This document shows positions 14,304-28,291 of a stretch of DNA of 64,000 nucleotides, one piece after another. The first letter of the stretch is position 1; every line of letters starts with the position of its first letter. The translations under genes and the position numbers were made by a program. The notes under the pieces are model-generated. The model had not been told where the DNA came from, made no database searches, and saw only the letters and a program-made list of their open reading frames with translations. The DNA is from Acidobacteriota bacterium (GTDB lineage Bacteria > Acidobacteriota > Thermoanaerobaculia > Gp7-AA8 > JAHWKK01). The stretch lies in the NCBI GenBank assembly GCA_019347945.1, contig JAHWKK010000008.1, positions 82,643 through 146,642 of the forward strand, in the 5' to 3' direction.

Positions 14304-14320
14304 CAGGAAGGAAGAATGAG

Positions 14321-16777
14321 ATGAGTACAACGACACCATCACCCGACTCCGATCCAGAACCACGTCACGTCGACCCCGTCTGCGGAATGACAGTCGATCC
14401 GTCCCGTGCTGCGGGAGATTCCAGGTACCGCGACCAGACGTACTACTTCTGCTCAGTAAACTGTAAGGAGAGGTTCGACGCCGATCCCGAGAAGTATCTG
14501 GCAGCTGCAGGAGAGGAAGAGGATGCAGATGCGTCATCGGCGAGCAGCGCGAGCTCCTACATCTGCCCGATGGACCCGGAGGTGCGTTCGGAGAAGCCGG
14601 GCCCCTGTCCGAAGTGCGGGATGGCCCTCGAGCCGGAGCGCCCGCAGCTCACGCCGGAGAGAACCGAATGGACCTGTCCGATGCACCCGGAGATCATCCG
14701 CGACGCACCCGGCAGCTGTCCGATCTGCGGGATGGCGCTCGAGCCGCGCGTCGTCTCGCTCGAGGACGAAGAGAGCCACGAGCTTCGCGACATGCGGAGG
14801 AAGTTCATCGTCAGTGCGATTCTGAGCGTTCCACTCGTTCTCTTCGTGATGGGGCCCCACGTGGGGCTCGAGTTTTTCGGCGCGATGACGGAGTCGCGAC
14901 TGGGCCAGTGGCTCGAGCTCGCGCTCGCGACACCGGTCGTCATCTGGGGAGGGTGGCCATTTTTCCAGCGCGGCTGGTACTCGCTCGTCAACCGCAGTCT
15001 CAACATGTTCACGCTGATTGCCCTCGGTGTCGGCGTCGCGTACATCTACAGTGTCGTGGCCACTCTGTTTCCGGACCTCTTTCCCGCGTCGTTCCGTGAC
15101 GGGCACGGGCGCGTCGGCGTCTACTTCGAAGTGGCCGCGGTGATCGTAACGCTCGTTCTCCTCGGGCAGGTCATGGAGCTGCGAGCGCGCAGTCAGACCG
15201 GCGCGGCGATCAAGGCCCTCCTCGGGCTGGCACCGAAGACGGCGCGAAGAATCGAGCCGGACGGAAGCGAGCACGACATTCCGCTGGATCAGGTTCAGCC
15301 TGGAGATATGTTGCGCGTGCGGCCGGGCGAGAAGATCCCCGTCGACGGCACCGTCACCGAGGGGACGAGCAGTGTTGACGAGTCGATGGTGTCGGGTGAA
15401 CCGTTGCCCGTGGAAAAGGAAGCTGACGACCCATTGATCGGAGCAACGGTGAATCGGACCGGCTCGCTGATCATGCGCGCGGACAGAGTGGGTGCCGACA
15501 CGCTGCTCTCGCAGATCGTCCAGATGGTGGCGAAGGCGCAACGCAGCCGGGCGCCGATTCAGCGACTAGCCGACGTCGTCTCTGCATGGTTCGTCCCGGC
15601 CGTGATCGTGATCGCGATCCTCTCGTTCGTGATCTGGTGGATGTTCGGACCAGCTCCTTCGCTCGCGTTCGCGATCGTCAACGCGGTCGCCGTCCTGATC
15701 ATCGCCTGCCCCTGCGCACTCGGACTCGCGACGCCGATGTCGATCATGGTCGCCGCCGGGAAAGCGGCAACCGGGGGAGTTCTCTTCAAAGACGCCGAGG
15801 CGATCGAAACGCTCCGCACCGTCGATACATTGGTCGTCGACAAGACCGGAACCCTCACCCTCGGAGAGCCGAAGCTCGTCAGCGTCGTCGCCTCCGGTGC
15901 CGTGGAGGAGGATGAGCTCCTGCGTCTCGCCGCGTCACTCGAACGCGCGAGCGAGCATCCTCTGGCCGAAGCGATCGTCGAGGGAGTGCAGGAGCGTGGT
16001 ATCAAACTGTCGGGCGTCGAGGACTTCTCGTCCGTGACGGGCAAGGGAGTACGAGGGAGCGTCGAAGGACGTGATGTCGCACTCGGGAACCGCGCGCTCC
16101 TGACGGAGCTCGGGATTGATCCTGCCGACCTCGAGGGCCGCGCGGAAGCGCTGCGTGGCGAGGGACAGACGGCGATGTTCGTCGTCATCGACGGTCGCGC
16201 GGCCGGCGTGATCGCCGTCGCGGACCCGATCAAAGATTCGACACCCGAGGCGATCCAACAACTCCATGAAGAGGGGATGCGGATCGTGATGCTGACCGGC
16301 GACAGCAGAACGACGGCAGAGGCCGTGGCGAAAAAGCTCGGGATCGACGAAGTCATGGCCGAGGTGCTGCCGGAACAGAAGGCAGCGGCGATCGAGAAGC
16401 TGCAGGGGGAAGGGCGGATCGTGGCGATGGCCGGGGACGGGATCAACGACGCCCCGGCGCTCGCGCAGGCGCAGGTCGGAATCGCGATGGGCACCGGAAC
16501 GGATGTCGCGATGGAAAGCGCCGGGGTGACGCTCGTGAAAGGCGACCTGCGCGGTATCGTCCGGGCACGAAGGATCAGCCGCGCCACCATGCGCAACATC
16601 CGCCAGAATCTCTTCTGGGCGTTTGCCTACAATGCACTCGGAGTACCAGTGGCGGCGGGCGTTCTGTATCCGTTCTTCGGGATTCTTCTGACCCCGATCA
16701 TCGCCGCCGCTGCCATGAGCTTCAGCTCCGTCTCGGTGATTCTGAATTCCCTGCGGCTGCGCGCCATGCGGGTGTGA
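14321..16777 (+). CDS. copA: Copper-type P1B ATPase with YHS and two metal-binding fingers
   Basis: This inner-membrane ATPase exports Cu(I)/Ag(I) from the cytoplasm. The 818-residue order is: a YHS domain (about 15-65, [10 protein letters not shown]...YYFCS), two heavy-metal-binding fingers (YICPMDP...CPKCGM and WTCPMHP...CPICGM, about 80-145), eight TM helices, the TGE-type actuator loop ([10 protein letters not shown]), the ion-path motif CPC (about residues 462-464), the phosphorylation loop DKTGTLT (about 507), HP in SEHPLAEA, and GDGINDAP. There is no N-terminal GMxCxxC HMA domain; the YHS and finger domains take that place. An AGGAAG ribosome binding site precedes ATG 14321. The gene closes the copper block. 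Confidence 0.92.
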
Positions 16778-16879
16778 TTCGGCTGGTTCGCGGCCGTCCC
16801 CGTGGCGATGCGGTCCCGCGTCATGTCGTGTTTGGATCGTAAGTTGTCGTGTTCGGACGGGTGTCTCTAAGAGGTCAGG

Positions 16880-17191
16880 TCACTTCGAGTTCAGTATTGC
16901 GCCGAGAGCTCTCGTGATCCTGTCGAGCCGCTCTTCTTCACTCCCCGGCATGCAGGAGGTGACGCATGAGCGCATCTCTTCCTCCACGAGAATCGCGGCG
17001 ACGCGATTGATCGCTGCTTTCACGGCCGAAATCTGCAGAAGAATCTCGTCCGCGCAGCGATGATCGATCACCATCTGCCTCACGCTCCGCAGGTGCCCCT
17101 CCGCGCGCGCCAGCCGGTCCGCCAGCGCCTTCTGCGATTCCGCCGTCAGATAGTGATCAGACTCGGCAACAGGTCTCCGCTTCTTCGGCAT
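16880..17191 (-). CDS. CsoR/RcnR-family metal-sensing repressor
   Basis: This is a 103-residue all-helical DUF156 regulator. Ligand positions seen are Cys46 (DHRCADEI) and Cys76 (EEEMRSCV), with an extra Cys80. The His of the copper-sensor C-H-C set (normally in EEHLxHC) is Glu72 here, so this is not a standard CsoR. Cys-only family members sense sulfane sulfur or other soft ligands, so mercury, selenium or persulfide are possible inducers. It is the last gene of the minus-strand operon and overlaps the preceding gene by 35 nt. Candidate operators lie at 18392 and 19836. Confidence 0.85.
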   Translation of the reverse strand: MPKKRRPVAESDHYLTAESQKALADRLARAEGHLRSVRQMVIDHRCADEILLQISAVKAAINRVAAILVEEEMRSCVTSCMPGSEEERLDRITRALGAILNSK

Positions 17192-17651
17192 TGCTTCCTC
17201 CCTGAGCCGTTTCGAACGCGGCTCGTTCCAGATTCATCACGTCGCCCAGACAGCAGCTCCCTTTTGGGTTTCGAAGCTCGCAGGCACATCGCCCGACCCG
17301 AACCAACTCGCGGATTTCATCCGAAACGATCTGCTCTCCTCCGGCACGCTGCCGGATCGCGCCGACGGAGTGACCGAAGCAATAGCATACGGGAGTACTG
17401 CCACTGTCGGGAGCTTTCGAGAAGACGGGCACGCGAACTGAACCGGTGGATACGATCTCCTCGCCGCTGCCGTCGAAGTAGACGACGGAACAATCTGTCG
17501 TCCGGCAGAAGAGCGGATCTCCGGGCATGCCTTCTGCCAGGGCTTCGGGGGTTGCCATGATCCTGACGATCGTGTCGGATACCGCCGTCCCTGGCTGACC
17601 ACATCGAGGGCAGGAGCCAGGAGCAGTCCGATCGCTTCCGGACTCAGTCAC
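17157..17651 (-). CDS. CopZ-like zinc-ribbon/[2Fe-2S] protein
   Basis: This 164-residue cytoplasmic protein has an N-terminal zinc ribbon (SCPRCGQPG), a middle part with FCRTTDCSVVYF, and a BFD-like [2Fe-2S] cluster region (VCYCFGHSVGAI...GRCACELRNPKGSCCLGDV). This matches the N-terminal domain of Archaeoglobus-type CopZ, which is often found free-standing in mer and cop operons and is proposed to reduce or relay metal. A C-terminal ETCCRV gives one more vicinal Cys pair. It overlaps merP upstream by 8 nt and csoR downstream by 35 nt. Confidence 0.78.
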   Translation of the reverse strand: MTESGSDRTAPGSCPRCGQPGTAVSDTIVRIMATPEALAEGMPGDPLFCRTTDCSVVYFDGSGEEIVSTGSVRVPVFSKAPDSGSTPVCYCFGHSVGAIRQRAGGEQIVSDEIRELVRVGRCACELRNPKGSCCLGDVMNLERAAFETAQGGSNAEEAETCCRV

Positions 17652-17967
17652 TGTCGTTTCCCTCGTCGAGGACTTCAGTCTCGTAGGTGAGCTTTTCCTG
17701 AATCGTCCTGGCGATCTGTTCAGCAGTCACCCGCTCCGGATCGAACGTGACGATCGCGCGACCTTTCTTCCAGTCGACCTTCGCATCGTGAACGCCATCG
17801 ATCTTCTTCACGACCGCCTTGACCGAGACGGCACATCCGCCGCACGTCATCCCTTCGATCTTCAGAACGGTCTGCTCCTCATGCACCCCTGCCGCCTCGG
17901 GTCCGAAGAGCCCGGCCAGCACGGCCGTGACTGCGAGCAGAACTGTCACTACTGCGATTCGCTTCAT
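17644..17967 (-). CDS. merP: MerP-like periplasmic metal-binding protein
   Basis: The 107-residue protein has a signal peptide (to about residue 25) and one HMA domain with the canonical GMTCGGC motif near residue 40, followed by VSVKAVVKKIDGV. It should bind Hg(II) or Cu(I) in the periplasm and pass it to the adjacent MerT. Its two ligand residues are both cysteine, in contrast to the Sec/Cys pair in the paralogues at 22555 and 26064. It lies between merT and the CopZ-like gene on the same strand. Confidence 0.85.
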   Translation of the reverse strand: MKRIAVVTVLLAVTAVLAGLFGPEAAGVHEEQTVLKIEGMTCGGCAVSVKAVVKKIDGVHDAKVDWKKGRAIVTFDPERVTAEQIARTIQEKLTYETEVLDEGNDSD

Positions 17968-18004
17968 GTCATTCCTTTCATTTCACGTTCGTTAGTATTC
18001 GGCT

Positions 18005-18373
18005 TCACAGAATCAGAACCGACCATTCGGGAAACGTCAGCACCAGCGCAATGATGATCGTTGCGGTCCACAACACGACCCGATTCCAGCGCTGGATACG
18101 ATCCGTGCCGTGTGTCTCGCAGACCGATCCGGTTCTGCACTCCTTCGGTTTGCGATAGGCGAGGTAGAACGAGATTCCCAGCAGCACCACAGTCAGCACC
18201 GCCAGCCATGGCCGAAGAAACCCATATTTCGAAAGAGCGGCGAGACTCGACACGCCGAACGTTGCAGCGAGAATAGGCCCTATACAGCAGAGCGACGCTC
18301 CGACTGCCGTAATGATTGCCAGACCCACACTTCGCGAGGAGGCCGATGCCGGTGCCGCTGAATGTTCGGTCAT
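18005..18373 (-). CDS. merT: MerT-like mercuric transport membrane protein
   Basis: The 122-residue protein has three TM segments. The first contains the vicinal pair in GASLCCIGPIL that accepts Hg(II) from MerP, and a second Cys pair (KECRTGSVCE) sits in the loop after TM2, as in MerT. It imports mercuric ion for reduction or transfer in the cytoplasm. ATG 18373 has a GGAGGAG ribosome binding site 8 nt upstream, so the in-frame GTG at 18391 is rejected. No classical merA with an N-terminal HMA domain is visible; the reductase next door is a different subfamily. Confidence 0.88.
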   Translation of the reverse strand: MTEHSAAPASASSRSVGLAIITAVGASLCCIGPILAATFGVSSLAALSKYGFLRPWLAVLTVVLLGISFYLAYRKPKECRTGSVCETHGTDRIQRWNRVVLWTATIIIALVLTFPEWSVLIL

Positions 18374-18391
18374 GTGAAGTCTCTCCTCCAC

Positions 18392-18408
18392 ATCCCCCCA
18401 CGGGGGAT
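18392..18408. promoter_or_regulatory. CsoR-type operator upstream of merT
   Basis: A near-perfect dyad, ATCCCCC-CAC-GGGGGAT, lies 18 nt upstream of the merT start. C-tract then G-tract palindromes of this size are the known operator type of CsoR/RcnR repressors, and a CsoR-family gene ends this operon. A very similar dyad lies at 19836-19851. Confidence 0.6.
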
Positions 18409-18456
18409 CATGCTGTACAACGGCGATCCTGGCTGTCTGATTTCATTCGAGTGGGG

Positions 18457-19806
18457 TTACACCATGTAGGGCAGATCCGAGCCCTTCGTGGGATACGCCC
18501 ACATGACCTGCTTCAGCTCCCCCGCTGGAATCCCGCTCTGCATCGCCAGCGCAAACAGGTTGATCAGCTCTTCGGAGCCGTGACCGAGGAGGTGCGCCCC
18601 CACGATGCGTCCGGTAGCGCGCTCGACGAGCACCTTGTGCATCGCCGCGTCTTCACCGATGCGGCGCGAGCTGAACCAGCCGGAGGTCTGCTGCATCTGA
18701 ACCTCGATCTCGACACCGCTGTCACGTGCGTCCTTCTCGCTCAGGCCGACGCGGGCGAGGGGGGGTATCGTGAAGACGACACTGGGAATCACCTCATGCG
18801 TGGCTTCCCGCGCTCCCTCCTTCACGATGTTCGACCCGATGATGTGCCCGTGAGCGACGGCAACGGGTGTGAGTGGAATGCCGGCGTCGGCGGCGTCCCC
18901 ACCAGCCCATACTGCACTGTTCGAGACGCTTCGCAGGGTGCGATCGACCGTGATGCCTCGAGGAGTGGCCTCGACTCCTCCTGCTTCGAGATCGAGAGGA
19001 TCGATTCGCGCAACACGACCTCCGCCATGAACCACGAGCTCGGTCGGTACCGTCGCAGAACCTTCCGGACCTTCGATCGCTACATCGAATCCGTCCCCGC
19101 GCGAGCTCACCCCGACCACCTTTGTTTCCGTCAGGATTTCGATTCCGAGGCTTCGGGTCGCCTCGACCAGCGTCTCGACCAGCTCTGGTTCGAAGGGTCC
19201 GAGCGGCCTTTGCGCCATCTCCAGGATTCTCACCCGTGATCCAGCGCGGGCGGCGACGTGCGCAAATTCGAAGCTGATGAATCCACCACCGACGAAGGTG
19301 ACGTCTCGCGGTAGCGACTCGACATCGAGAAAGTCGGTGCTGGTCATCAGATGGCTGGCTCCCTCGAACGGAAACGGGAACGGCTCGGCCCCTGTCGCGA
19401 TCACGATCTGGTCGGCGCGTACCTCGATGCCCTCGAGATCGAGTGTGCCCGGTCCTTTGAAACGCGCCCGTGCATGCCGTGTCTCCACGCCAGCCTTCTG
19501 CAGCCGTCGCTCACTCTTCTCAGGTACCGGATCAGTGAAGCTCCGCTTGAAGCGCTGAAGCTCCGCCCAATCGATCTCCACGGATTCGCTGCGCACTCCC
19601 GATCCTCGCATCCGCCGGGTCCAGTCGATCGCTTCGGCTGCCGCGACGAGGATCTTCTTCGGATCACACCCGCGCAGTGCACAGGTCCCGCCGTAGGGAA
19701 GCTCGTCCGTGATCAGTACCTTCCGTCCAGCTGCGGCACAGCGCACCGCAGCGGTCTGTCCTGTCGCCCCGGTACCGATCACCACGACCTCGAATCTCGC
19801 GTTCAT
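18457..19806 (-). CDS. FAD-dependent pyridine nucleotide-disulfide oxidoreductase
   Basis: This 449-residue flavoenzyme belongs to the glutathione reductase/mercuric reductase superfamily. It shows GTGATGQTAA (FAD), the redox-active CxxxxC in YGGTCALRGCDPKK, the NAD(P) site VGGGFISFEFAHVA, and GGDAAD. The C-terminus ends WAYPTKGSDLPYMV and lacks the vicinal Cys pair of MerA, so Hg(II) reduction as in MerA is not assured. In this operon it could supply electrons to the DsbD/CcdA-type selenoproteins or to a small-molecule thiol. A CsoR-type dyad lies 30 nt upstream. Confidence 0.85.
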   Translation of the reverse strand: MNARFEVVVIGTGATGQTAAVRCAAAGRKVLITDELPYGGTCALRGCDPKKILVAAAEAIDWTRRMRGSGVRSESVEIDWAELQRFKRSFTDPVPEKSERRLQKAGVETRHARARFKGPGTLDLEGIEVRADQIVIATGAEPFPFPFEGASHLMTSTDFLDVESLPRDVTFVGGGFISFEFAHVAARAGSRVRILEMAQRPLGPFEPELVETLVEATRSLGIEILTETKVVGVSSRGDGFDVAIEGPEGSATVPTELVVHGGGRVARIDPLDLEAGGVEATPRGITVDRTLRSVSNSAVWAGGDAADAGIPLTPVAVAHGHIIGSNIVKEGAREATHEVIPSVVFTIPPLARVGLSEKDARDSGVEIEVQMQQTSGWFSSRRIGEDAAMHKVLVERATGRIVGAHLLGHGSEELINLFALAMQSGIPAGELKQVMWAYPTKGSDLPYMV

Positions 19807-19835
19807 AGCTGGCGGGGGTGCACGTTTGGTACCGG

Positions 19836-19851
19836 ACCCCCCAGGGGGGAT
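19836..19851. promoter_or_regulatory. CsoR-type operator upstream of the reductase gene
   Basis: ACCCCCC-A-GGGGGGAT forms a C-tract/G-tract dyad 30 nt before the reductase start. It nearly matches the dyad at 18392-18408, which suggests that one CsoR-family repressor controls two internal promoters of the operon. Confidence 0.6.
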
Positions 19852-19878
19852 ACAACCGTGACGAACGGCATTCTTTCC

Positions 19879-20583
19879 TCAGCCGGACGCGCGCATCATG
19901 ACCAGCCCCGACCATGCGAACCAGATGGCGACGGCGAAGAGAATGATGGCGCTGGCGAGCTCGATCGGTCGCTGAGAACGGCGGATGCGGAAGATGGCTC
20001 GTGATGCCGCACCGGCGAACCAGCCGACGAGGAGGAAGGGAAGGCCTCGTCCGATCGCATACGCGAGCGAGAGAAATGCTCCCCAGGCTGGCTTCCCGAC
20101 CGCCGCGGAGAGAGTCAACAGGAGCATCAGCGGGCCGGCCGAGGTTGTCACGGCCGCAATGCTGTAGACGGCCCCGTATGCGAATGCACCCGCGACTCCC
20201 CATTGCGGCGGACGGATCGTACGGGACCGCCGCGGAATGACGGCGATCAGTCCAGCAAGGAAAGAGATCGCCGCGATGGTGAAGGTGAATAGGACGTCGT
20301 ACTGCCTGAGGACCTGTCCGGCATACGCGGCGACCGTCCCGAGGATCACGAGAACACTGATCACCGCGGCGAAGAACGAGGCCGACAGGACAAGGCTGCG
20401 ATTGCGGCTGTGGGCTCCGGAGCTGTCTGCACCCACGTACCCCGCGATTCCCGCACCTGCGGGAATGGTGAATGGTCACGTCGCGGTCGAGAGTAATCCA
20501 GCGACGAGCCCTATCAGAATCGCGAGTCCCGGGGCTCCCGCGATCGCATCGGAAAAACGCGCGATCAGCTCAACCGGCGACAT
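19879..20583 (-). CDS. CcdA/DsbD-family membrane protein, predicted selenoprotein (Sec36)
   Basis: Translation from ATG 20583 reads MSPVELIARFSDAI...GLLSTAT, meets TGA at 20478-20476, and continues in the same frame as PFTIPAGAGIAGYVG for 198 more codons with six hydrophobic helices. In CcdA/DsbD proteins a conserved Cys sits at the end of TM1 before a proline, and the TGA falls in that place (T-U-P). The second Cys position, before GP in TM4, is Ser (TTSAGPL). A perfect 8-bp stem with loop AGGT follows (20447-20466). Without selenocysteine only a truncated GTG-start ORF (20436) would be called. The start overlaps the upstream membrane gene by 14 nt. The likely job is moving reducing equivalents across the inner membrane. 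Confidence 0.82.
20447..20466 (-). promoter_or_regulatory. SECIS-like hairpin of the CcdA-type selenoprotein
   Basis: On the minus strand an 8-bp perfect stem, ATTCCCGC/GCGGGAAT, holds the loop AGGU. The loop starts 17 nt after the TGA. In E. coli fdhF the SelB-binding loop AGGUCU also starts 17 nt after the UGA. The match in distance and loop sequence is strong support for selenocysteine insertion. Confidence 0.8.
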
Positions 20584-20997
20584 GGATCAGAATCCTTCCG
20601 GCAGTCCAGAAGATCAGGGATGGTAGGACGAGCATCTGCAGAATCGGAATCCATCCGACACGAAGCCCGGGGATCCGGGGCATTCGATCGCCGTACTCCC
20701 ATCGACGGAGACGGTGCACGGCGATAAGCTCGACCAGGAACGCGAGCACGAGCCCGGTGACGAGGATAAGCGCCAGTCTCATCCAGTCCATGACGACGAA
20801 CCACGCGACCGTTCCGAAGGCGATCCAGCCGGCGATCAGAATCAAAACGATCATGAGACCGTCTCCCAGAGATGCAATGAGACACCGGCGCAGCCGGCGC
20901 GACCCGTCTCGCTGCATCCATAAAGCGGAAACTGCAGCATCTCCCACGCGAGATTCACCGCGACGGCGATAACGAACACTAGAAGGATGCCGGCCAT
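20570..20997 (-). pseudogene. Frameshifted small membrane protein (paralogue of 30375-30818)
   Basis: ATG 20997 begins AGILLVFVIAVAVNLAWEMLQFPLYGCSETGRAG. The frame then stops early. The homologous remainder, SLGDGLMIVLILIAGWIAFGTVAWFVVMDW...WEYGDRMPRIPGLRVGWIPILQM, is in another frame and ends at 20570. The two parts together match the layout of the intact 147-residue protein at 30375-30818 (HFAWEMAQ; GDVVITLVAFF; WSYADDMPTIVG). A single indel around 20880-20910 would join them. Either the gene is inactivated, or there is a base-call error or programmed shift. Its stop overlaps the selenoprotein start at 20583, so it belongs to the operon. Confidence 0.6.
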
Positions 20998-21050
20998 GGT
21001 GACTTCCACGAATCAGGTTTCTCTCTTCCCGCTGTCGCTCCACAGTGGAG

Positions 21051-21427
21051 TCACGTAGAGTTCTCCTCATCTTCGAGAGCTTCGAGGATCGGACATTCAA
21101 CATCGTCGGTGGCGCAGGCGCAGGAAACGACCAGAGCATCCAGCGCTCTTCGGATCGACTGGAGCTGCCGGATCTTATCCTTGACGCTGTCGATCTTCTG
21201 TTGCGCCATCAGACGGATCTGATCGCGATCGATTCCGCGTGCGGATCGCATTTCCAGAAGATCGTGAACTTCCTCGAGAGTAAAGCCGAGATCCTGGGCA
21301 GTACGAGCCTGCACCGTTGTGCCTGCGGGTCCGGACCGGCATCGGCCGCTGGCTTCTCGCATGCCGCGGCGACCAGCGCGGCCGCACTGATGATCAGAAG
21401 GCGAGATGCCATGTTCATACGATTCAT
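21051..21427 (-). pseudogene. Chimera: lipoprotein signal peptide joined to a MerR C-terminal half
   Basis: ATG 21427 with an AGGAG site starts a lipoprotein leader (MASRLLIISAAALVAAACEKPAADAG), whose mature domain is missing after about 37 residues. From about 21325 another frame encodes the C-terminal part of a mercury-type MerR regulator: RTAQDLGFTLEEVHDLLEMRSARG, a dimerisation helix, and the Hg-ligand region VVSCACATDDVECPILEAL. The MerR DNA-binding domain is absent. A deletion seems to have joined a periplasmic protein gene to a merR gene. The MerR half alone could act as a dominant dimer partner only if some internal start is used. Confidence 0.6.
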
Positions 21428-21449
21428 CGATTTCTCCTTTTTTCCTGCA

Positions 21450-22511
21450 TCAAACGGTGAAGACGCGAGAGAACTCCTGCGCGAAGATCGCGAGAATGAG
21501 GAGCCACGTGCCCACTGTGACGAGAATCCAGCCTCCGATCCGCTTGACGTCCTTCGCCCGGGCCTGCATCCGCTCGAGAACCTGTTCCTGTGCGCTTGCA
21601 ATGGAGAAGGAAAGTGAAAACATCAGAATGACGATCGCCAGTGCGGCGACGGCGAAGGCTCCCAGCGCCGAGGCGGCACTGCCGATTGTGAGGGCATGTC
21701 CGGCCAGACCGGTCAGAATAGGCCCCGTTCAGCCAAACCCCGCAAGAAGATAGCCGAATCCGAAAAGCCCGAACGACAGCACCGGATGATCCCGGCGTCT
21801 ACGCGCCTGGGCCCGCATGAACGGACGACCCATCACGCCGAGCCGGTGGAGAGGGTTCGGCAAGATCCCCATCTGGACGAGACCGAGCACGATCAGAAAG
21901 ATACCGACAGTCGTCCTGATCGTCCGGCCGGCAGTGCTGGTGAATGTAACGCCGGCGAACAGCGTTCCCGCGCCGAAAGCAATCGCCGCTCCGGCGAGGA
22001 TCAGGAAGAGTGCCGCTCCGATCGAAAGCGACGTGGCAAAAAGGACAGCGCGGCGGGCCGTCCCCGGACCGCGGCCGGATTCACGAGCCAGGAGCGTCAC
22101 CAGCAGCGGGAACACGCACGGAGAAAAAAACGATGCGACCCCCGCACCGATCGAAAGAACGATCAGACCCGAAAAATCGACGGCGGGAAGATCAAAGCGG
22201 GGGTAGAGCTCATAGCCGGCATAGCCGACGAGGGCAAGGAGTATCAGCGCTCCGATGATGAAGAGGTAGGGCCGCGAACGGGCGACCGGTCCCGGAGAGG
22301 GTTCGCTCCTCGGTGGAAAACCCGCGTCGCTCAGTCGCCGCGCGAGCTCCTCCTGCGAGACGACCGATTTATCATGCTCGATCGTCACGCTGCGGCCGAC
22401 CGTGTCGACCTCGAGCATCTCGATCCCCTCAACCTCCTCCATTTCGTTCCGGATCATCTCCGAGCACCCGTCGCAGGTGATTGGTAAATTGTCGAACGTG
22501 GTTTTGCTCAC
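21450..22511 (-). CDS. HMA-DsbD/CcdA fusion, predicted selenoprotein (Sec261)
   Basis: The 353-codon frame starts at ATG 22511. Residues 1-65 are an HMA domain with the CDGC motif (LPITCDGCSEMIRNEMEEVEGI). A CcdA/DsbD-type domain follows with FFSPCVFPLL at the first redox Cys. At the second redox site the sequence is AGFG-TGA-TGPILTGLAG (21731-21729), where relatives have Cys before the GP. The frame continues through further TM helices to the TGA stop at 21450, ending FAQEFSRVFTV. So the redox pair would be Cys/Sec. Conventional annotation would truncate it at residue 260. It follows the Sec-HMA gene by 43 nt. Function inferred: transmembrane electron or metal transfer coupled to a cytosolic metal-binding domain. 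Confidence 0.82.
21700..21728 (-). promoter_or_regulatory. Candidate SECIS region of the HMA-DsbD selenoprotein
   Basis: The apical-loop-like sequence CGGTCT begins 17 nt after the TGA, as in the other cases and in E. coli. The stem is weak: a 4-bp CCGG/CCGG hairpin (21712-21709 with 21703-21700), or mismatched pairing around CGGTCT. This is the least convincing of the four hairpins. Confidence 0.4.
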
Positions 22512-22554
22512 CGGACGAGCCTCGGCATCGAGCCTTTTCCGTTGTCAGCGTTCA

Positions 22555-23079
22555 TCAGTCCCGCGTCCCTTTCGCCTCCGAGCGCAGAGCGAACTCCCTC
22601 ACATGAAGCATCCGCGGGAGCTCGTCGCCTCGGTCTTCACGGATGATCCCCGTCACGACGATTTGTTTGCCGGAAAAGCCATCATGAATCTCCTTTGCGA
22701 TGCCTTTCGAAGAAGGGTGGTCTTCGAGTAGATAAACGATGCCGGAGCCGGTCACCTCAAGCGCCGGCAGTTCGCGATGAATCGCCGTGCCCGCGATGCG
22801 GACGGTCGCATGCTTCGGAGTGAAGCCGCTGTCGATCGCCACCTGGCGGATCTCGTCGACAGTGACCTCATTCTCCGGCTTGAATTGAATTGTGGCAATT
22901 CCCTCGTTCAGGGAAACTTCCACCGATTCGACGCCATCAATCTTCTCTAGTGCCACGCGCACGGCGTGAGCGCAGACGGCTCAGTCCATGCCGAAGATCG
23001 TCTGACGCATCTCCAGCAGCTCTGCATCGACCGTAACCAGGATCAAGATCAGCAATACCATCAGTGCAGCACGTCTCAT
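22555..23079 (-). CDS. Periplasmic HMA protein, predicted selenoprotein (Sec33)
   Basis: ATG 23079 has a GGAGGAG ribosome binding site and a short signal peptide (MRRAALMVLLILILVTVDA). It then reads RQTIFGMD-TGA-AVCAHAVRVALEKIDGVESVEVSLNEG, so the TGA (22983-22981) replaces the first Cys of the GMxCxxC metal site. The HMA domain (about residues 25-95) is followed by an 80-residue C-terminal domain that may be an OB fold (VRIAGTAIHRELPALEVTGSGIVYLL). A paralogue with the same TGA lies at 26064-26609. This is the first gene of the minus-strand operon and has its own MerR-type promoter at 23107-23138. The predicted role is binding a soft metal with a Sec/Cys pair. Confidence 0.85.
22953..22969 (-). 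promoter_or_regulatory. SECIS-like hairpin of Sec-HMA protein 1
   Basis: On the minus strand the stem TCACGC/GCGTGG (one U-G pair) holds the loop CGTGC, starting 17 nt after the TGA. The paralogue at 26189 has CCACGC/GCGTGG with the same loop, so the one stem difference (C to U) keeps pairing. Confidence 0.75.
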
Positions 23080-23106
23080 CGCTCCTCCATTCAAAATGTT
23101 CGACCA

Positions 23107-23138
23107 ACCGTAGCACTTCCATCCGACTGGAAGGTCAA
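23107..23138 (-). promoter_or_regulatory. MerR-type promoter/operator of the minus-strand selenoprotein operon
   Basis: Reading the minus strand, TTGACC (-35) is followed by the perfect dyad CTTCCA-GTCGGA-TGGAAG and a -10-like TACGGT, with a 19-20 bp spacer. The long spacer with a central dyad is the hallmark of promoters activated by MerR-family metal sensors. The site lies 28 nt upstream of the ATG at 23079 and shares its core with the sites at 23584 and 23629. Confidence 0.75.
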
Positions 23139-23170
23139 GCAAGCGGCGGAGGGAGTGTACGGGGAGTCAA

Positions 23171-23536
23171 TCACGTCCCCGCTCTTCCTGATTTCACCTG
23201 GTAGTGTATTGTCTGCTGTTGGATCTTTCCGCCACGGATGACGAAGGAATCGACGCCCTCGTGAACGAATGACGCATCCGATTCTCCGTCCCATACCAGC
23301 AGCGCGACCTCTCCCGCCGTTCTCTTCACTTTGTAACGGAAACGAGCATCTGGAAGCTGACGGTTCAGCAGAGCGGCCGCCTTGCGCACGCCGTCGTGCC
23401 CGTGAAATGTTCCGAAGCTCGTCAGCAGGACCGCATCACTCGCATAGTTTCGACCCAGATCGTCGTCTACGCTGCCCGTTTGCGACTCTCGCAGATGGTC
23501 CTCGAAAACTTCTTCGGTGCTCCGGGTGCTATTCAT
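23171..23536 (-). CDS. SnoaL/NTF2-like protein
   Basis: This 121-residue cytoplasmic protein has the cone-shaped NTF2-like fold signature: VFEDHLRESQTGSVDDDLGRNYASDAVLLTSFGTFHGHDGV and a C-terminal VIRGGKIQQQTIHYQV. The ligand is unknown. It starts at ATG 23536, just downstream of a MerR-type promoter (23584-23615), so it is probably metal-induced with its neighbours. A secreted relative lies at 32451-32900. Confidence 0.7.
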   Translation of the reverse strand: MNSTRSTEEVFEDHLRESQTGSVDDDLGRNYASDAVLLTSFGTFHGHDGVRKAAALLNRQLPDARFRYKVKRTAGEVALLVWDGESDASFVHEGVDSFVIRGGKIQQQTIHYQVKSGRAGT

Positions 23537-23583
23537 CCGCCGATCCTCCTTTCAACATCTTTCGCTCGAATCAGGATCTGCAC

Positions 23584-23615
23584 CTTATACACCTTCGAGT
23601 CGACTGAAAGGTCAA
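23584..23615 (-). promoter_or_regulatory. MerR-type promoter/operator of the SnoaL-like gene
   Basis: On the minus strand TTGACC is followed by a long dyad (CCTTTCAGT CGA CTCGAAGG, imperfect) and TATAAG, with a 19-20 bp spacer. The layout equals the other two MerR-type sites, although the dyad is less perfect. Confidence 0.65.
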
Positions 23616-23628
23616 AGTTCATCGCCGC

Positions 23629-23659
23629 TTGACCTTCCACTCGAATGGAAGCATTAAAT
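23629..23659 (+). promoter_or_regulatory. MerR-type promoter/operator of the plus-strand metal operon
   Basis: TTGACC at 23629-23634, a perfect dyad CTTCCA-CTCGAA-TGGAAG at 23634-23651, and TTAAAT at 23654-23659 give the 19-bp spacer typical of MerR-activated promoters. It lies 50 nt before the copper-storage protein start, back-to-back with the minus-strand site at 23584-23615. Confidence 0.78.
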
Positions 23660-23709
23660 TGCATTTTTCACTCAGCAAACGTAGCCACCAACCGACAGAA
23701 GGAGGAGTC

Positions 23710-24054
23710 ATGAGTCCAGCTACGGCCACGAAGCAATCGAATCGACAGGAATGTATCGACCGATGTGTAGAGATGGTTCAGGTGGTTTCGCGGTGCATCG
23801 ACGAATGTCTGCGGGCGGATGCGAAGCGCGCGTCGGAGTGCATCCGCGCCTGCCTCGACTGTCTCGACCTCTGCATCGCCTGCGCAAAAATGCTCAGTCG
23901 CGGTTCCGAAAGCGCCCCATGCCCGGAGTGCGCTGAGGTGTGTGAGAGGTGTGCCGATCTTTGCGATGAGTTGCAGGATCTTGGCGACGCGCTGCGGGAG
24001 TGCGCCGAAGCGTCTCGGCGATGCGCCGAGGCATGCCGCGCGATGGTCGGGTAG
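23710..24054 (+). CDS. Csp-like copper storage four-helix protein
   Basis: The 114-residue protein is made of amphipathic helices with Cys at helical spacing: ECIDRCVEMVQVVSRCIDECLRA, ECIRACLDCLDLCIACAKML, CPECAEVCERCADLCDELQ and ECAEASRRCAEACRAMV. This is the DUF326/Csp pattern, in which many Cu(I) ions are held inside the bundle. No signal peptide is present, so it should be cytosolic (Csp3-like). ATG 23710 has a GGAGGAG ribosome binding site. It is the first gene after the MerR-type promoter at 23629. Confidence 0.87.
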   Translation: MSPATATKQSNRQECIDRCVEMVQVVSRCIDECLRADAKRASECIRACLDCLDLCIACAKMLSRGSESAPCPECAEVCERCADLCDELQDLGDALRECAEASRRCAEACRAMVG

Positions 24055-24137
24055 AACTTTTAGCGGCCCCTGCTCGAATGCCCGGTGCTCGTGCGCCCTT
24101 CCCGGGGCGGTGATGGCTCTCCAGCTCGATGGGAATA

Positions 24138-24151
24138 TGTACCGCGGTACA
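24138..24151. promoter_or_regulatory. Perfect 14-bp palindrome before the HMA gene
   Basis: TGTACCGCGGTACA is a perfect palindrome 53 nt upstream of the start at 24204. It may be an operator, and GTAC half-sites also occur in classical mer operators. The -35/-10 context is not clear. Confidence 0.35.
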
Positions 24152-24203
24152 GGGATCGTTACCCTCACTGTCGTACAAAAAATCAGGAGCAGAGGAGCTG
24201 AGC

Positions 24204-24551
24204 ATGTTGAATGGGAAACGTATCGCCGCGGGAGTTCTGGTTCTCTTCAGCGCCATCGGTTTGTCGGCGTTGACCGTCACGCAGGAGCCGCAGAAGAAGC
24301 GACCGAATGAAGAGGCGAAAGCCATTCCGGTTGAGCTGGTGCTGCACGTCGAGGGCATGCACTGCGGGAATTGTGCGAAATCGCTGATGACGGTCCTGAA
24401 CAATACTGACGGAGTACTGGCGGCTGACGTGGTCTTCGAATCGAAGGAAGCTCGCATTCGCTTCGACGAGACGAGGATCAGCAAAGCGGATCTGATCGCG
24501 CTCGTCGAGGAGCTCGGATTCGAGGGTCGTGTAAAAACTCCGAAGGAGTGA
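24204..24551 (+). CDS. Secreted HMA-domain metal-binding protein
   Basis: This 115-residue protein has an N-terminal signal or anchor segment (AAGVLVLFSAIGLSALTVT), a charged linker, and one HMA domain with canonical GMHCGNCAKSL (Cys/Cys). It continues VLNNTDGVLAADVVFESKEARIRFDE. It probably binds Cu(I) or Hg(II) in the periplasm. It follows the copper-storage gene and precedes a MerT-like gene, an arrangement parallel to merT-merP on the minus strand but with the gene order reversed. Confidence 0.8.
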   Translation: MLNGKRIAAGVLVLFSAIGLSALTVTQEPQKKRPNEEAKAIPVELVLHVEGMHCGNCAKSLMTVLNNTDGVLAADVVFESKEARIRFDETRISKADLIALVEELGFEGRVKTPKE

Positions 24552-24555
24552 CATC

Positions 24556-24768
24556 GTGCAGACGCTGAAATCGCGAAAGCTCAGTCCCACGGACCTGCTC
24601 AGCAGTTCTCTCGTGGTGGCAATCGACCGCGCGCCGACCGGCCTCAGCGCCCGGTCATTCCAGCTCGGACAGCGCCTCCAGGTCACCGGCTCGATCGGCA
24701 AGACCCGAGATGGTGGCGTCGGCTTCGTCGCTTCGACAATCCAGGCCAGTGATGGAGGCCGAACGTGA
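24556..24768 (+). CDS. Small hypothetical protein, possible OB fold
   Basis: This 70-codon frame starts at GTG 24556, 5 nt after the HMA stop, and overlaps the next start by 4 nt, so spacing supports translation. The middle, FQLGQRLQVTGSIGKTRDGGVGFVAST, looks like part of a small beta barrel. There is no signal peptide and no Cys. I do not recognise a family. Confidence 0.45.
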   Translation: MQTLKSRKLSPTDLLSSSLVVAIDRAPTGLSARSFQLGQRLQVTGSIGKTRDGGVGFVASTIQASDGGRT

Positions 24769-25193
24769 ATATGGTTCGAAACGCGAGTCTCACCCGTTCG
24801 AGAACCACCAGCAGCGTGGGCAGTTTCTTTTCTCTTTTTACATCGGTCGGCACGCTCCTCTGTTGTGCTCTCCCTTCGCTTCTGGTTCTCATCGGTCTCG
24901 GTGCGACGGTTGCCTCGACACTCTCGGCAGCCCCGTGGCTCGTGACCCTGTCGCGCAATAAGGAGTGGATGTTCCTTGGCTCGGGGCTGATGATCGGTGC
25001 AAATTTCTTCTACGTCTATTCAGTGGGGCCGCGTCTTCGGGCTCATCAGCTCTCCTGCGATCCCTCCGCTCCGGAGGCATGTGACGTCGCCACTCGTTTC
25101 AGCCGCGTCACGCTCTGGATCTCCGCGGCTGTGTGGGCGGCTGGATTTTTCGTGGCCTTCATTCTCGGACCATTACTGATGAGGTTTGGATGA
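24765..25193 (+). CDS. MerT-like membrane metal transporter
   Basis: The 142-residue protein has three to four TM segments. TM1 has SVGTLLCCALPSLLV, the vicinal pair of MerT-type transporters. A loop with SCDPSAPEACD gives the second Cys pair. It is longer and more divergent than the merT at 18005 and ends with an extra TM helix. It overlaps the preceding gene by 4 nt and the next gene by 4 nt (ATGA), so it is tightly coupled in the operon. The substrate is not determined; Hg(II) or Cu(I) are candidates. Confidence 0.7.
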   Translation: MNMVRNASLTRSRTTSSVGSFFSLFTSVGTLLCCALPSLLVLIGLGATVASTLSAAPWLVTLSRNKEWMFLGSGLMIGANFFYVYSVGPRLRAHQLSCDPSAPEACDVATRFSRVTLWISAAVWAAGFFVAFILGPLLMRFG

Positions 25194-26050
25194 TGAAACA
25201 GGTTATTTCTCTTCTCGCTCTCGCACTCGCATTGATAGCCGTCGGCCCCGATCTGATGGCATCAGGACACGGCCCCGTTTACGGACTCGCAACGCCAACC
25301 CTGGGAAAAGGAGGATGGAGCCTCGACACCGCAATCATGGTGCGCTCGGAGGAGGTGGATCGGGAGAGCGTGATGGCGCGACCGATGGTAGGGTACGGGA
25401 TCACCGAGGACCTTCAGCTGTCGTTCTCGGTTCCCGTTGCGATTTACCGTGAGGAGGGTTTGCAACCGGAGCGGGCGATGGCGATGATGCCTGGAACTCC
25501 CGACGTGGAGTTCATGGTCAACTGGCGATTCCACCGAGAGGGAACGGACGTCGGCGCACGGTTCGAGAGTACCGCCTTCTTCGGCCTCGAGTATCCGACC
25601 GACTCGGTACGTGCCGGGGTGCGAACGTCACCAGGAGTTCTCGGCGGCGTGGTCACGGGATATGCATCCCGCAGCATCTACGCATGGGCTGGCGGACTCT
25701 ACCAGAGATCGATGAGCCCGCGCAGCGCTACCGCCGATCACATCGGCGATCTCGGGATGGTCAGTCTGGTCTTGGGGTACAGGCCTCAGGTCTTTCGCCA
25801 GGAACTGCCACATCCCGACTGGCGTCTGTTCGTGGAAGCGATCGGAGAGTGGCGTCAGCCGGACATCCGGAATGGAATTGAATTGGCGAACCGGGGGGGC
25901 GAGCAGGTGTTCATTGGTCCTACGGTGCTCGGTCTCTATGGACCCTGGGGGATCTCCGGGGGACCGGTCTTCCCGGTCTACAGCGATTTGAATGGCGACC
26001 AGCCGGAGGAGAACTACCGGTTCGTCGTGAACTTTACCTACTGGTTCTGA
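25190..26050 (+). CDS. Outer-membrane beta-barrel protein of the metal operon
   Basis: The 286-residue protein has a signal peptide (LLALALALIAVGPDLMASGH) and alternating beta strands ending in aromatic residues, with a C-terminal FVVNFTYWF typical of outer-membrane barrels. Strand motifs such as GYGITEDLQLSFSVPV and DVEFMVNWRFHREG resemble the transporter-like barrels found in metal and hydrocarbon operons. The substrate is unknown. Fragments of its 5' end recur in the chimeric duplicate at 29650. The start overlaps the MerT-like stop (ATGA). Confidence 0.7.
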   Translation: MMKQVISLLALALALIAVGPDLMASGHGPVYGLATPTLGKGGWSLDTAIMVRSEEVDRESVMARPMVGYGITEDLQLSFSVPVAIYREEGLQPERAMAMMPGTPDVEFMVNWRFHREGTDVGARFESTAFFGLEYPTDSVRAGVRTSPGVLGGVVTGYASRSIYAWAGGLYQRSMSPRSATADHIGDLGMVSLVLGYRPQVFRQELPHPDWRLFVEAIGEWRQPDIRNGIELANRGGEQVFIGPTVLGLYGPWGISGGPVFPVYSDLNGDQPEENYRFVVNFTYWF

Positions 26051-26063
26051 GGAGAGTGTTCCC

Positions 26064-26609
26064 ATGAAGCGAATCATACGAGTCATTGTTGCTGCGGCAC
26101 TCGTGCTCATCCTGACGCCGCTGAGCGCCAGCGCCGAGATTCTCTCGATCCGGCAGACCATCTTCGGCATGGACTGAGCGGTCTGCGCCCACGCCGTGCG
26201 CGTGGCCCTGCAGAAGATCGAAGGAGTCGACTCGGTACGAGTCTCACTCAACGAAGGAATCGCCGACGTCCGGCTGAAGGAAGGCAACGAGGTGACCATT
26301 GAACAGGTCCGGCAAATTGCCACCGACAGCGGATTCACGCCCAGGGGGGCGGAGGTCGAGGTCGCCGGAACCATCGTCTCTCACAGGGAAGCCGGTCAGG
26401 TCGCCTTTCGAGTGACGGGTCAGGACTTGATCTACATTCTCGTCGACGATCCGAAATCGGAAGGCGCGGTGCGACGGCTGCGGAAGCGTCCGCCCGAGCA
26501 CGAGATCGTCGTGAGCGGGTTCGTCCCCGAAGAGCGGAAGGTGAACGAGCCGAGGGCGCTTTATCTGAGAGAGTTCGAGCGGAGAGAGCAGAGAAAGGCT
26601 GCTCAGTAG
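26064..26609 (+). CDS. Periplasmic HMA protein, predicted selenoprotein (Sec38)
   Basis: ATG 26064 starts a signal peptide (VIVAAALVLILTPLSASA). The frame then reads RQTIFGMD-TGA-AVCAHAVRVALQKIEGVDSVRVSLNEG. The TGA (26175-26177) takes the place of the first Cys of the GMxCxxC site. The frame stays open for 143 codons after the TGA, giving 181 residues with an HMA domain and a C-terminal domain (VEVAGTIVSHREAGQVAFRVTGQDLIYIL) like that of the paralogue at 22555. Amino-acid identity on both sides of the TGA shows the read-through product is under selection. A SECIS-like hairpin follows. It is the last structural gene before the merR at 26697. Confidence 0.86.
26189..26205 (+). promoter_or_regulatory. 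SECIS-like hairpin of Sec-HMA protein 2
   Basis: The stem CCACGC (26189-26194) / GCGTGG (26200-26205) holds a CGTGC loop that starts 17 nt after the TGA and contains the GU dinucleotide typical of SelB-binding loops. The paralogue at 22953 has the same loop with a U-G pair in the stem. Confidence 0.78.
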
Positions 26610-26696
26610 CCGGGATAGTGGCTGGCGGTTCCGTCGATCTACGACTTAAGGAGGAGTGGCACCCTGCACGCATATCGAACGCAGAAGGACGCGCAT

Positions 26697-27134
26697 ATGC
26701 TTCGGATCGGTGAACTGGCAGAAGTGTGCGCAGTGGGAACGAAGACGATACGGTACTACGAGAGTATCGGGCTGCTTCCTCCACCACCGCGCAGCGAAAA
26801 TGGATACCGACGTTACGACGGCGCGGCAGTCCTGCGTCTGCGGTTCATCACGAAGGCGAAGGGCCTGGGACTCAGGCTCGCCGAGATTCGGGAGATCCTG
26901 AGCCTGCACGACCGAGGCGAGTCGCCATGCGATCGCGTTCTGAATCTCACTAAGGAGAAAATCAATTGGGTCGATGAGCAGATCCGGGCTCTCCAGTTAT
27001 TCCGTACAGACCTGCAGCAGTTGTGGCACGAAGCACAGGAGAGCCGGGCTCAGACCCGCGATTGCGTCTGTAGTCTCATAGAAGATCACTCGATTGCGCA
27101 GGAAGCCGCGTACCCGCGTCAAAAACTCAACTAG
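26697..27134 (+). CDS. MerR-family heavy-metal regulator
   Basis: The 145-residue regulator has an N-terminal MerR helix-turn-helix (LRIGELAEVCAVGTKTIRYYESIGLLPPPPRSENGYRRYD), a dimerisation helix, and metal-ligand cysteines: one in ESPCDRVLNLTKEKI at the start of the helix and two in TRDCVCSLIEDH at the C-terminus. This spacing fits the Cd/Pb/Zn/Hg sensor branch (CadR/PbrR type). It is the obvious candidate to act at the three MerR-type promoters at 23107, 23584 and 23629. A damaged copy of its sequence lies at 29758-30167. Confidence 0.87.
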   Translation: MLRIGELAEVCAVGTKTIRYYESIGLLPPPPRSENGYRRYDGAAVLRLRFITKAKGLGLRLAEIREILSLHDRGESPCDRVLNLTKEKINWVDEQIRALQLFRTDLQQLWHEAQESRAQTRDCVCSLIEDHSIAQEAAYPRQKLN

Positions 27135-27170
27135 TAGTCCTTCCCGCACACAGCTGCACTGACCAGTGCG

Positions 27171-27794: not shown

Positions 27795-28291
27795 GAGAAC
27801 TCCTCGACCGATCCAGCGCCTTCGGAATCCTCACGTTCAATGCGGAAATCAAAGCATCCCGCTTCCGTGTCGTACACTTGAACATATGCGACGTCATTTC
27901 GGGAAAGAAGACGCTTCACCGCCAGGTCAGGCATTGTTCCGTCGATCGCGATCTGCTCTCTATGCTCACGTGGCGCGCCATAGGCGACCAGCGTGAGCGG
28001 ATGTGCGAGCAGATGATTCGGGAAGCCGGCGTCTTCCTCGTAACGCGGACACGGTTCCGCATGGATGTACACAGGGCCGGGCTGCGGCAGCGCCTTCAAA
28101 TCGCTGAAGGCGTCGTAGGTGAAGAGGATGCGCTCCTCGTTTCCGACATCGAAGTAGCGGAGACAGTGACGGCAGGGCCCGTAGCCTTTCGCCACCTCGG
28201 TGTGCGCGGGATGCCCATATTTCGGAGAGCGAAGCGTGCTGCGCACGCTCTCGGCAACTGCGGTTGGAATCGGTACGATACGCATATTCAC
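27788..28291 (-). CDS. DUF1203 family protein
   Basis: The protein contains the family signature YGPCRHCLRYF with a CxxC, then FTYDAF, GPVYIHAEPCPRY and HLLAHPLTLVAYG. The function of DUF1203 is unknown. I start it at GTG 28291 because an AAGGAG site lies 8 nt upstream; ATG 28285 is also possible. Longer in-frame versions (to 28402) begin with atypical residues and would overlap less usefully with upstream DNA. Confidence 0.75.
   Translation of the reverse strand: MNMRIVPIPTAVAESVRSTLRSPKYGHPAHTEVAKGYGPCRHCLRYFDVGNEERILFTYDAFSDLKALPQPGPVYIHAEPCPRYEEDAGFPNHLLAHPLTLVAYGAPREHREQIAIDGTMPDLAVKRLLSRNDVAYVQVYDTEAGCFDFRIEREDSEGAGSVEEFSC

What the first reader, a model, noticed from the sequence alone, without database searches (positions are those of the whole stretch)
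16880..27134. Selenocysteine-based metal/thiol handling island: four read-through TGA genes in one pair of divergent operons
Seen directly: two divergent operons carry four open frames interrupted once each by TGA, always at a conserved functional Cys, together with MerT, MerP, a CopZ-like Fe-S protein, a disulfide reductase, a Csp-like storage protein, CsoR and MerR. Known: HMA domains use CxxC to hold soft metals, DsbD/CcdA carry electrons across the inner membrane by Cys pairs, and selenolate binds Hg and Cu(I) more strongly than thiolate. Inference: the operons encode a selenium-dependent relay in which electrons from the reductase pass through Sec-CcdA and HMA-DsbD to periplasmic Sec-HMA proteins, which bind or release mercury or copper. 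I cannot say whether such a cluster has been described.
Basis: partly seen in the sequence, partly recalled or inferred. Interest (0 to 1): 0.95.

Follow-up and report, generated by a model that had tools for sequence, protein, structure and literature searches.

The report
Selenium-based metal-handling gene island
Four neighbouring bacterial genes carry a TGA codon exactly where relatives have a conserved cysteine, so they are predicted to make selenium-containing proteins that likely bind and move toxic soft metals such as mercury or copper; most database copies of two of them stop or start at that codon, so gene finders have probably been cutting these proteins short.

Summary
Confirmed. 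Four genes between 19879 and 26609 each hold one in-frame TGA, and the genome has SelA, SelB, SelD and tRNA-Sec. Two secreted HMA proteins read UxxC; relatives read UxxC, UxxU or CxxC. The six genes sharing the CAHAVRV stretch have an identical 15-nt hairpin core after the TGA, which the close CxxC genes lack. In the HMA-CcdA protein the TGA replaces the second CcdA cysteine. Of the 120 listed database relatives (own entry included), 117 end exactly there; the three that continue are 47-55% identical to the window over the next 92 residues. The small CcdA-like protein has no cysteine, so it cannot work as a normal CcdA; 108 of its 120 listed relatives begin downstream of the site. Neighbours (MerT, HMA proteins, CsoR, MerR, CopZ-like protein, CopA-type ATPase) point to soft-metal handling, and one relative of the HMA cassette sits in a mer operon whose MerP also carries a TGA. 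Its electron relay is plausible for HMA-CcdA, unlikely for the small CcdA, and untested. Neither CcdA-type family is in a 119-family catalogue of 2026 or reaches an NCBIfam cut-off, but two relevant papers could not be read.

The parts
22555..23079 (-). Sec-HMA-A: secreted HMA protein, UxxC; TGA at 22983-22981
   Evidence: HMA PF00403 47.1 bits, cut-off 24.8; TGA in relatives L022, L053, L054
22953..22969 (-). hairpin after the TGA of Sec-HMA-A (likely SECIS)
   Evidence: identical 15-nt core in six genes; codon conservation; passes bSECIS rules
21450..22511 (-). HMA-CcdA membrane protein; TGA at 21731-21729 at the second CcdA Cys; other Cys at 13, 16, 132
21699..21717 (-). candidate hairpin after the TGA of HMA-CcdA
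   Evidence: fold; fails the strict bSECIS test
19879..20583 (-). small CcdA-like protein, one TGA (20478-20476), no Cys
   Evidence: DsbD_TM PF02683 29.2 bits, cut-off 27.1
20447..20466 (-). hairpin after the TGA of the small CcdA (candidate SECIS)
   Evidence: passes bSECIS rules, loop AGGU; fold
26064..26609 (+). Sec-HMA-B: secreted HMA protein, UxxC; TGA at 26175-26177
   Evidence: HMA PF00403 40.8 bits; model pLDDT 89.3
26189..26205 (+). hairpin after the TGA of Sec-HMA-B (likely SECIS)
18457..19806 (-). FAD disulfide reductase (GGTCALRGCDPKK), not MerA
   Evidence: Pyr_redox_2; MerA model 264.7 of 454.45 bits; no C-terminal Cys pair
18005..18391 (-). MerT protein
   Evidence: PF02411 46 bits, cut-off 32.9
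17644..17967 (-). MerP/CopZ-like HMA protein, CxxC
   Evidence: PF00403 63.5 bits; MerP model 49.6 of 92.55
17157..17651 (-). CopZ-like Fe-S metallochaperone
   Evidence: zf_CopZ; NF047645 100.9 of 100 bits
16880..17191 (-). CsoR-type repressor
   Evidence: PF02583 66.1 bits, cut-off 22.8
14294..16777 (+). CopA-type P-type ATPase with YHS and HMBD domains
23692..24054 (+). cysteine-rich Csp-like protein
   Evidence: DUF326 19.8 of 20.4 bits; TIGR04401 26.5 of 100: below both cut-offs
24204..24551 (+). secreted HMA protein, CxxC
   Evidence: PF00403 56.4 bits
24765..25193 (+). MerT-like membrane protein (name by resemblance: vicinal CC)
   Evidence: no Pfam or NCBIfam match; beside the HMA gene in 9 of 10 loci
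25193..26050 (+). conserved outer-membrane-like protein (function guessed)
   Evidence: no family match; beside the HMA gene in 9 of 10 loci
26697..27134 (+). MerR-family regulator
   Evidence: PF13411 66.6 bits; metal specificity open

Best explanation
Four genes of this island carry an in-frame TGA at a conserved cysteine position and are predicted to encode selenoproteins that likely capture and move a soft metal (mercury or copper) through the cell envelope, with the HMA-CcdA membrane selenoprotein likely passing electrons outward to keep the selenol and thiol sites reduced. Shown: the TGA sites, their match to Cys or TGA in relatives, the Sec machinery, the conserved post-TGA hairpin of the HMA genes, and the neighbourhoods. 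Inferred: Sec insertion itself; that the secreted UxxC domains bind metal like MerP or CopZ; that MerT-type proteins carry it inward and the ATPase exports it; that Cys132 and Sec261 of HMA-CcdA form a reversible selenylsulfide fed from the cytosol through its HMA domain, perhaps by the FAD reductase. The small CcdA, with one Sec and no Cys, more likely binds or conducts metal than carries electrons.
For: Sec machinery. HMA site: UxxC, UxxU and CxxC forms in relatives; 15-nt hairpin core identical in six genes, identical codons in 53 of 60 comparisons there against 202 of 509 elsewhere, CxxC controls 21 of 48 and 405 of 919. SelB over cut-off in 8 of 11 genomes with TGA-bearing HMA genes and in 0 of 5 close CxxC genomes. 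HMA-CcdA: 117 of 120 listed relatives end at the site, C132 in 120 of 120, conserved sequence beyond the site in the 3 that continue. Small CcdA: 12 of 12 full-length relatives have Cys, 108 of 120 begin downstream. Metal context; copper chaperone and MerP folds for the HMA domain.
Against: No protein or selenium data. Hairpin rules alone are weak: 13 of 62 Cys codons and 47 of 275 random codons pass, and HMA-CcdA fails; folds are not exceptional against shuffles (z 1.00, -1.17, 0.28, -1.92); covariation is reached by 102 of 500 shuffles. G110 (95% complete) has a UxxU gene but no SelB over cut-off. Three HMA-CcdA relatives show Trp at the site. No Pfam match of its membrane part reached a cut-off. 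No DNA of close relatives was available for HMA-CcdA or small CcdA. A few distant CcdA matches contain TAG, TAA or TGA at unexamined places. Two neighbouring frames look disrupted. The electron-transfer step has no direct support.
Confidence: 0.55

Rival explanations
1. Selenoproteins, but both CcdA-like membrane proteins likely conduct metal or metalloid by a Sec/Cys path, and there is no electron relay.
For: The small CcdA has no Cys pair; its Cys relative lies between HMA and metal ATPase genes in G131; HMA-CcdA is fused to a metal-binding HMA domain; the weak best NCBIfam match of its membrane part is the ArsG permease family (14.6 of 200 bits).
Against: HMA-CcdA keeps both CcdA redox positions (C132, U261); the ArsG match is far below cut-off; a reductase gene lies in the same gene group.
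Confidence: 0.3
2. The Sec proteins are general envelope redox enzymes (repair of oxidised thiols or metal-damaged proteins) and the metal genes are neighbours under the same regulators.
For: UxxC is a usual redox motif (PMC13188914); CcdA family; disulfide reductase.
Against: HMA folds match copper chaperones and MerP; cassette in a mer operon in G511; a MerT-like partner in G107 has a TGA at one of its vicinal Cys.
Confidence: 0.1
3. The TGAs are real stops, errors or decay: truncated proteins or pseudogenes.
For: 117 of 120 listed HMA-CcdA relatives are annotated as ending there; two nearby frames look disrupted.
Against: Same codon in independent genomes with CxxC counterparts; sequence beyond the site conserved; codon-level hairpin conservation; SelB pattern.
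Confidence: 0.04
4. TGA is read as tryptophan by a changed genetic code.
For: Three database relatives of HMA-CcdA show Trp at the site.
Against: Three of the four genes end at TGA; the sites align with Cys; the TCA-anticodon tRNA is a tRNA-Sec; P0157 also shows Trp where the window gene has its final stop, as a code-4 translation would.
Confidence: 0.01

Closest known systems
Predicted Sec forms of MerP, MerT and an E1-E2 metal ATPase, and the UxxU metal-binding selenoprotein NF041115 (PMC2398784, PMC9312934, PMC13188914)
   Same: Sec at metal-ligand Cys of HMA or MerT proteins
   Different: Sec-HMA-A and -B are longer, with a second domain, and score 50.6 and 39.7 of 95 bits with NF041115
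CcdA/DsbD transmembrane electron carriers
   Same: HMA-CcdA keeps the two reactive positions, one as Sec
   Different: HMA fusion and Sec; membrane part reaches no Pfam cut-off; the small CcdA lacks the pair
TsoB, rhodanese/DsbD fusion-like selenoprotein NF045694
   Same: a DsbD-like membrane part with Sec (PMC13188914 Table 1)
   Different: scores 6.1 and 13.2 of 805 bits; no rhodanese domain found
mer operon (MerR, MerT, MerP, MerA)
   Same: MerT and HMA proteins in the island; a relative cassette adjoins a mer operon in G511
   Different: no MerA in the window other than the non-MerA reductase; CsoR, CopZ-like and CopA-type parts added

Membership tests
bacterial selenoprotein | in-frame UGA aligned with a Cys of homologues | tested here: met
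bacterial selenoprotein | Sec machinery in the genome | tested here: met
bacterial selenoprotein | SECIS hairpin by the published rules | tested here: inconclusive
   A, B and small CcdA pass, HMA-CcdA fails; about a fifth of control codons pass; conserved at codon level only shown for the HMA genes
bacterial selenoprotein | selenium in the protein | not testable with these tools
   needs labelling or mass spectrometry
CcdA/DsbD carrier (HMA-CcdA) | two reactive membrane Cys (or Sec) | tested here: met
   C132 in 120 of 120; site 261 aligned with Cys in 24 of 25 distant relatives
CcdA/DsbD carrier (HMA-CcdA) | Pfam DsbD_TM over cut-off | tested here: not met
   no match for the window protein, though some listed relatives such as P0156 carry PF02683
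CcdA/DsbD carrier (small CcdA) | two reactive membrane Cys (or Sec) | tested here: not met
   one Sec, no Cys
MerP (TIGR02052) | score over curated cut-off | tested here: not met
   37.7 and 31.5 of 92.55 bits for Sec-HMA-A and -B
UxxU metal-binding selenoprotein NF041115 | score over curated cut-off | tested here: not met
   50.6 and 39.7 of 95 bits
TsoB NF045694 | score over curated cut-off | tested here: not met
   6.1 and 13.2 of 805 bits
mercuric reductase MerA | score over cut-off and C-terminal Cys pair | tested here: not met
   264.7 of 454.45 bits; C-terminus SDLPYMV
Csp1 copper storage protein TIGR04401 | score over curated cut-off | tested here: not met
   26.5 of 100 bits

The most novel reading that the evidence does not exclude
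HMA-CcdA is a widespread, Sec-dependent membrane selenoprotein family missing from the catalogue: a transmembrane conduit whose redox pair is Cys plus Sec and which feeds cytosolic electrons to selenol-based periplasmic metal chaperones, so that selenium directly drives envelope metal detoxification. Gene finders cut it at the Sec codon in several phyla. A second family, a Cys-free CcdA with a lone membrane Sec, is hidden in the same way.
Probability: 0.42. Interest if true: 0.86.

Novelty: new variant of a known kind. Interest (0 to 1): 0.76.

Why it matters
Selenolate binds mercury and copper more tightly than thiolate (established chemistry, recalled), yet selenium-dependent metal handling rests almost wholly on predictions. 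This island puts Sec at metal-ligand and membrane redox positions in one gene set, with natural CxxC, UxxC and UxxU versions to compare. It also points to two membrane-protein families whose listed database entries mostly stop or start at the Sec codon, so their full forms have escaped annotation.

Tried and rejected
Considered and rejected: changed genetic code, pseudogenes, and a mer operon in the strict sense (see rivals and Membership tests). Led nowhere: Rfam gave no match in 14000-28500 at E up to 1; plasmids held no match to HMA-CcdA or Sec-HMA-B and four distant matches to the small CcdA; viral contigs gave none for HMA-CcdA and small CcdA; the fold search of the HMA-CcdA model (pLDDT 77.9) listed HMA domains and no CcdA structure among the 50 rows shown; the second domain of Sec-HMA-B stays unassigned, because the HMA domain filled the list. 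HR33's genome gave no HMA-CcdA match.

Papers. Searches (listings). PMC13188914: two of three parts of section 7, with all of Table 1, and passages. PMC9312934 and PMC2398784: passages. PMC12013277: a term search that found nothing. Haft and Tolstoy 2025 and Haft and Gwadz 2023 are not held, so I cannot say that they lack these families.
Full report
OBSERVATION. The island (window 14294-27134) holds two divergent gene groups. Four frames contain exactly one internal TGA each: two HMA proteins (A, 23079-22555 minus; B, 26064-26609 plus; 51% identical), an HMA-CcdA fusion (22511-21450 minus) and a small CcdA-like protein (20583-19879 minus). Genome G000 (3.72 Mb, 49 contigs, 99.65% complete) encodes SelA (372.3 bits), SelB (355.1 bits, over cut-off), SelD (352.8 bits, with one TGA in its own frame) and a tRNA-Sec (68.9 bits, cut-off 47; anticodon TCA).

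SEC-HMA FAMILY. The protein is a likely signal peptide, an HMA domain and a second beta-rich domain (model pLDDT 89.3). In 396 genomes of the phylum 132 rang, many with ordinary HMA domains. Loci that I extracted show UxxC in the window pair, HR33 (L022), G210 (L053), G107 (L054) and G377 (L060), UxxU with two TGAs in seven loci (L064, L065, L067-L071), and CxxC in five close loci of four genomes (L055-L059). Other TGA-bearing UxxC genes with different motifs lie in L065 and L072. Of 259 genomes of HR33's phylum five matched at E up to 1e-9, two of them with a TGA: HR33 itself and G511. Of 34 listed database relatives, four are full length and have Cys; the other 30, the window's own included, begin after the site. 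In the comparison the stops in the HMA matches are TGA; one search lists one weak match (G321) with a TGA and a TAA that I did not look at.

HAIRPIN. The six genes with the CAHAVRV stretch (window A and B, HR33, G210, G107, G511) share the 15 nt CACGCCGTGCGCGTG, starting at nucleotide 16 counted from the T of the TGA. The other UxxC genes seen (in L060, L065 and L072, and the MerP of G511) do not have it. For the first five, identical residues use identical codons in 53 of 60 comparisons in this region against 202 of 509 elsewhere; in the five CxxC genes 21 of 48 and 405 of 919. The outermost pair is C-G, U-G or A-U, but 102 of 500 shuffles reach that covariation. By the published bacterial SECIS rules (PMC13188914, figure legend), A, B and the small CcdA pass with the loop 17 nt after the TGA; HMA-CcdA fails, its stem being interrupted. 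These rules are weak evidence by themselves: 13 of 62 Cys codons and 47 of 275 random codons pass, and the folds are not exceptional against shuffles (z 1.00, -1.17, 0.28, -1.92).

CO-OCCURRENCE. SelB was sought in 20 genomes. Of 11 with a TGA-bearing HMA gene, 8 have SelB over cut-off (G000, G210, G107, G377, G074, G095, G131, G128); G290 and G266 (65% and 72% complete) have partial matches below it; G110 (95% complete) has no match beyond the part shared with other elongation factors, which counts against the reading there. Of five close CxxC genomes (G049, G382, G147, G094, G163) none is over cut-off, although G210, of the same family, has both SelB and the TGA form. Three genomes with more distant Cys forms (G201, G238, G247) do have SelB, so Cys forms also occur beside the machinery. 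The twentieth, G362, has SelB.

HMA-CcdA. The window protein has Cys only at 13, 16 and 132, plus the TGA at 261. Of 25 distant relatives in the phylum 24 have Cys aligned with 261 and one does not reach it. The database search scored 7998 candidates, 451 passed, and the best 120 are listed. Of these 120, own entry included, 117 end at residue 260, 115 of the 117 in AGFG. The other three (P0157, P0158, P0174) read Trp there and go on, with 55, 55 and 47% identity to the window over all 92 following residues against 52-59% before the site. P0157 also shows Trp where the window gene has its final TGA, as a code-4 translation would; whether the DNA there is TGA or TGG I could not see. Cys132 is present in 120 of 120; of the 88 that cover the HMA motif, 87 and 88 have its two Cys. 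Source names include Vicinamibacteraceae, Luteitalea, Gemmatimonadales, Euzebya, Actinobacteria and Armatimonadetes. No close relative turned up in 396 phylum, 375 HR33-phylum or 148 class genomes apart from the own one, so neighbourhoods elsewhere are unknown. P0156 (88% identical) and P0002 (Sec-HMA, 92%) both name a longest contig of 2466 bases, which fits the same adjacency but does not prove it. The membrane part reaches no Pfam cut-off; that it is CcdA-type rests on the alignments and on PF02683 marks of some relatives.

SMALL CcdA. It matches DsbD_TM just over cut-off (29.2, cut-off 27.1 bits) and has one Sec and no Cys. Of 138 database relatives the best 120 are listed: 12 are full length, all with Cys at the site (CPC in 11, CPF in P0143), and 108 begin at positions 42-91 of the query, beyond the site, 82 of them without any Cys. 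Such uniform truncation is what a hidden TGA would give, but I have no DNA of these entries. In the phylum the two best matches, in G131 and G362, have Cys (CPC); a few distant matches contain TAG, TAA or TGA at places that I did not examine. The G131 relative lies in the order CsoR, HMA, CcdA, metal ATPase.

NEIGHBOURHOOD AND METAL. Of 10 loci compared, the outer-membrane-like gene adjoins the HMA gene in nine (not L060) and the MerT-like gene in nine (not L170); a CopA-type ATPase lies within the stretch in three. In G511 the cassette runs into MerR, MerT, a MerP that also has a TGA (GMT-U-DGC), and a reductase with GGTCVNVGCIPSK and a C-terminal SCCAV, that is, a mer operon (the meaning of these motifs is recalled). 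In G107 the MerT-like partner has a TGA at the second of its vicinal cysteines. The window's own reductase is of another type (GGTCALRGCDPKK, no C-terminal Cys pair), shared with G377 beside MerR, MerT and HMA proteins. CsoR, the CopZ-like protein and the ATPase suggest copper. The plus-strand MerR scores alike with Zn, Cd/Pb, Hg and Cu models, below every cut-off. Mercury and copper both remain reasonable.

MECHANISM. Best reading: secreted UxxC proteins catch a soft metal ion with a selenolate ligand; MerT-type proteins move it inward; the ATPase or cysteine-rich partners dispose of it; HMA-CcdA, with its C132/U261 pair, keeps the envelope selenols and thiols reduced at the cost of cytosolic reductant. 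All of this is inferred from families and gene order. The small CcdA is better seen as a metal-binding membrane protein than as an electron carrier.

KNOWN OR NEW. Sec forms of MerP, MerT, a metal ATPase, CopZ-type proteins and a UxxU metal-binding protein are already listed. Neither HMA-CcdA nor the small CcdA appears in Table 1 of PMC13188914, which the review counts as 119 families or subfamilies, and none of the four proteins reaches an NCBIfam cut-off. Two papers by Haft and colleagues cited there could not be read.

Noticed in passing
window 20560-21010 (-): A membrane-protein gene upstream of the small CcdA seems split over two frames (NLAWEMLQFPLY in one, ASLGDGLMIV in the next): a frameshift or an assembly slip.
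   Followed up: partly
window 21051-21427 (-): The C-terminal part of a MerR regulator (PF09278, 44.9 bits) follows a lipoprotein-like start in another frame; a remnant or an odd fusion.
   Followed up: partly
L018 (G000:C24:388-1335): SelD of the same genome itself contains one in-frame TGA, as in known Sec-containing SelD.
   Followed up: no
L170 5721-9874 (-): A mer operon (MerR, MerT, MerP, MerA-like) in G511 with two TGA-bearing genes, MerP and the cassette HMA protein.
   Followed up: partly
L054 8068-8358 (+): The MerT-like partner in G107 has a TGA at the second of its vicinal cysteines.
   Followed up: no
L131 5989-6366 (-): A CopZ-like match in G362 contains one TGA; its place was not examined.
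   Followed up: no
L065 (G095): One stretch of about 20 kb holds a UxxU HMA gene, a UxxC HMA gene, MerT, HMA, CopZ-like and MerA-like genes.
   Followed up: no
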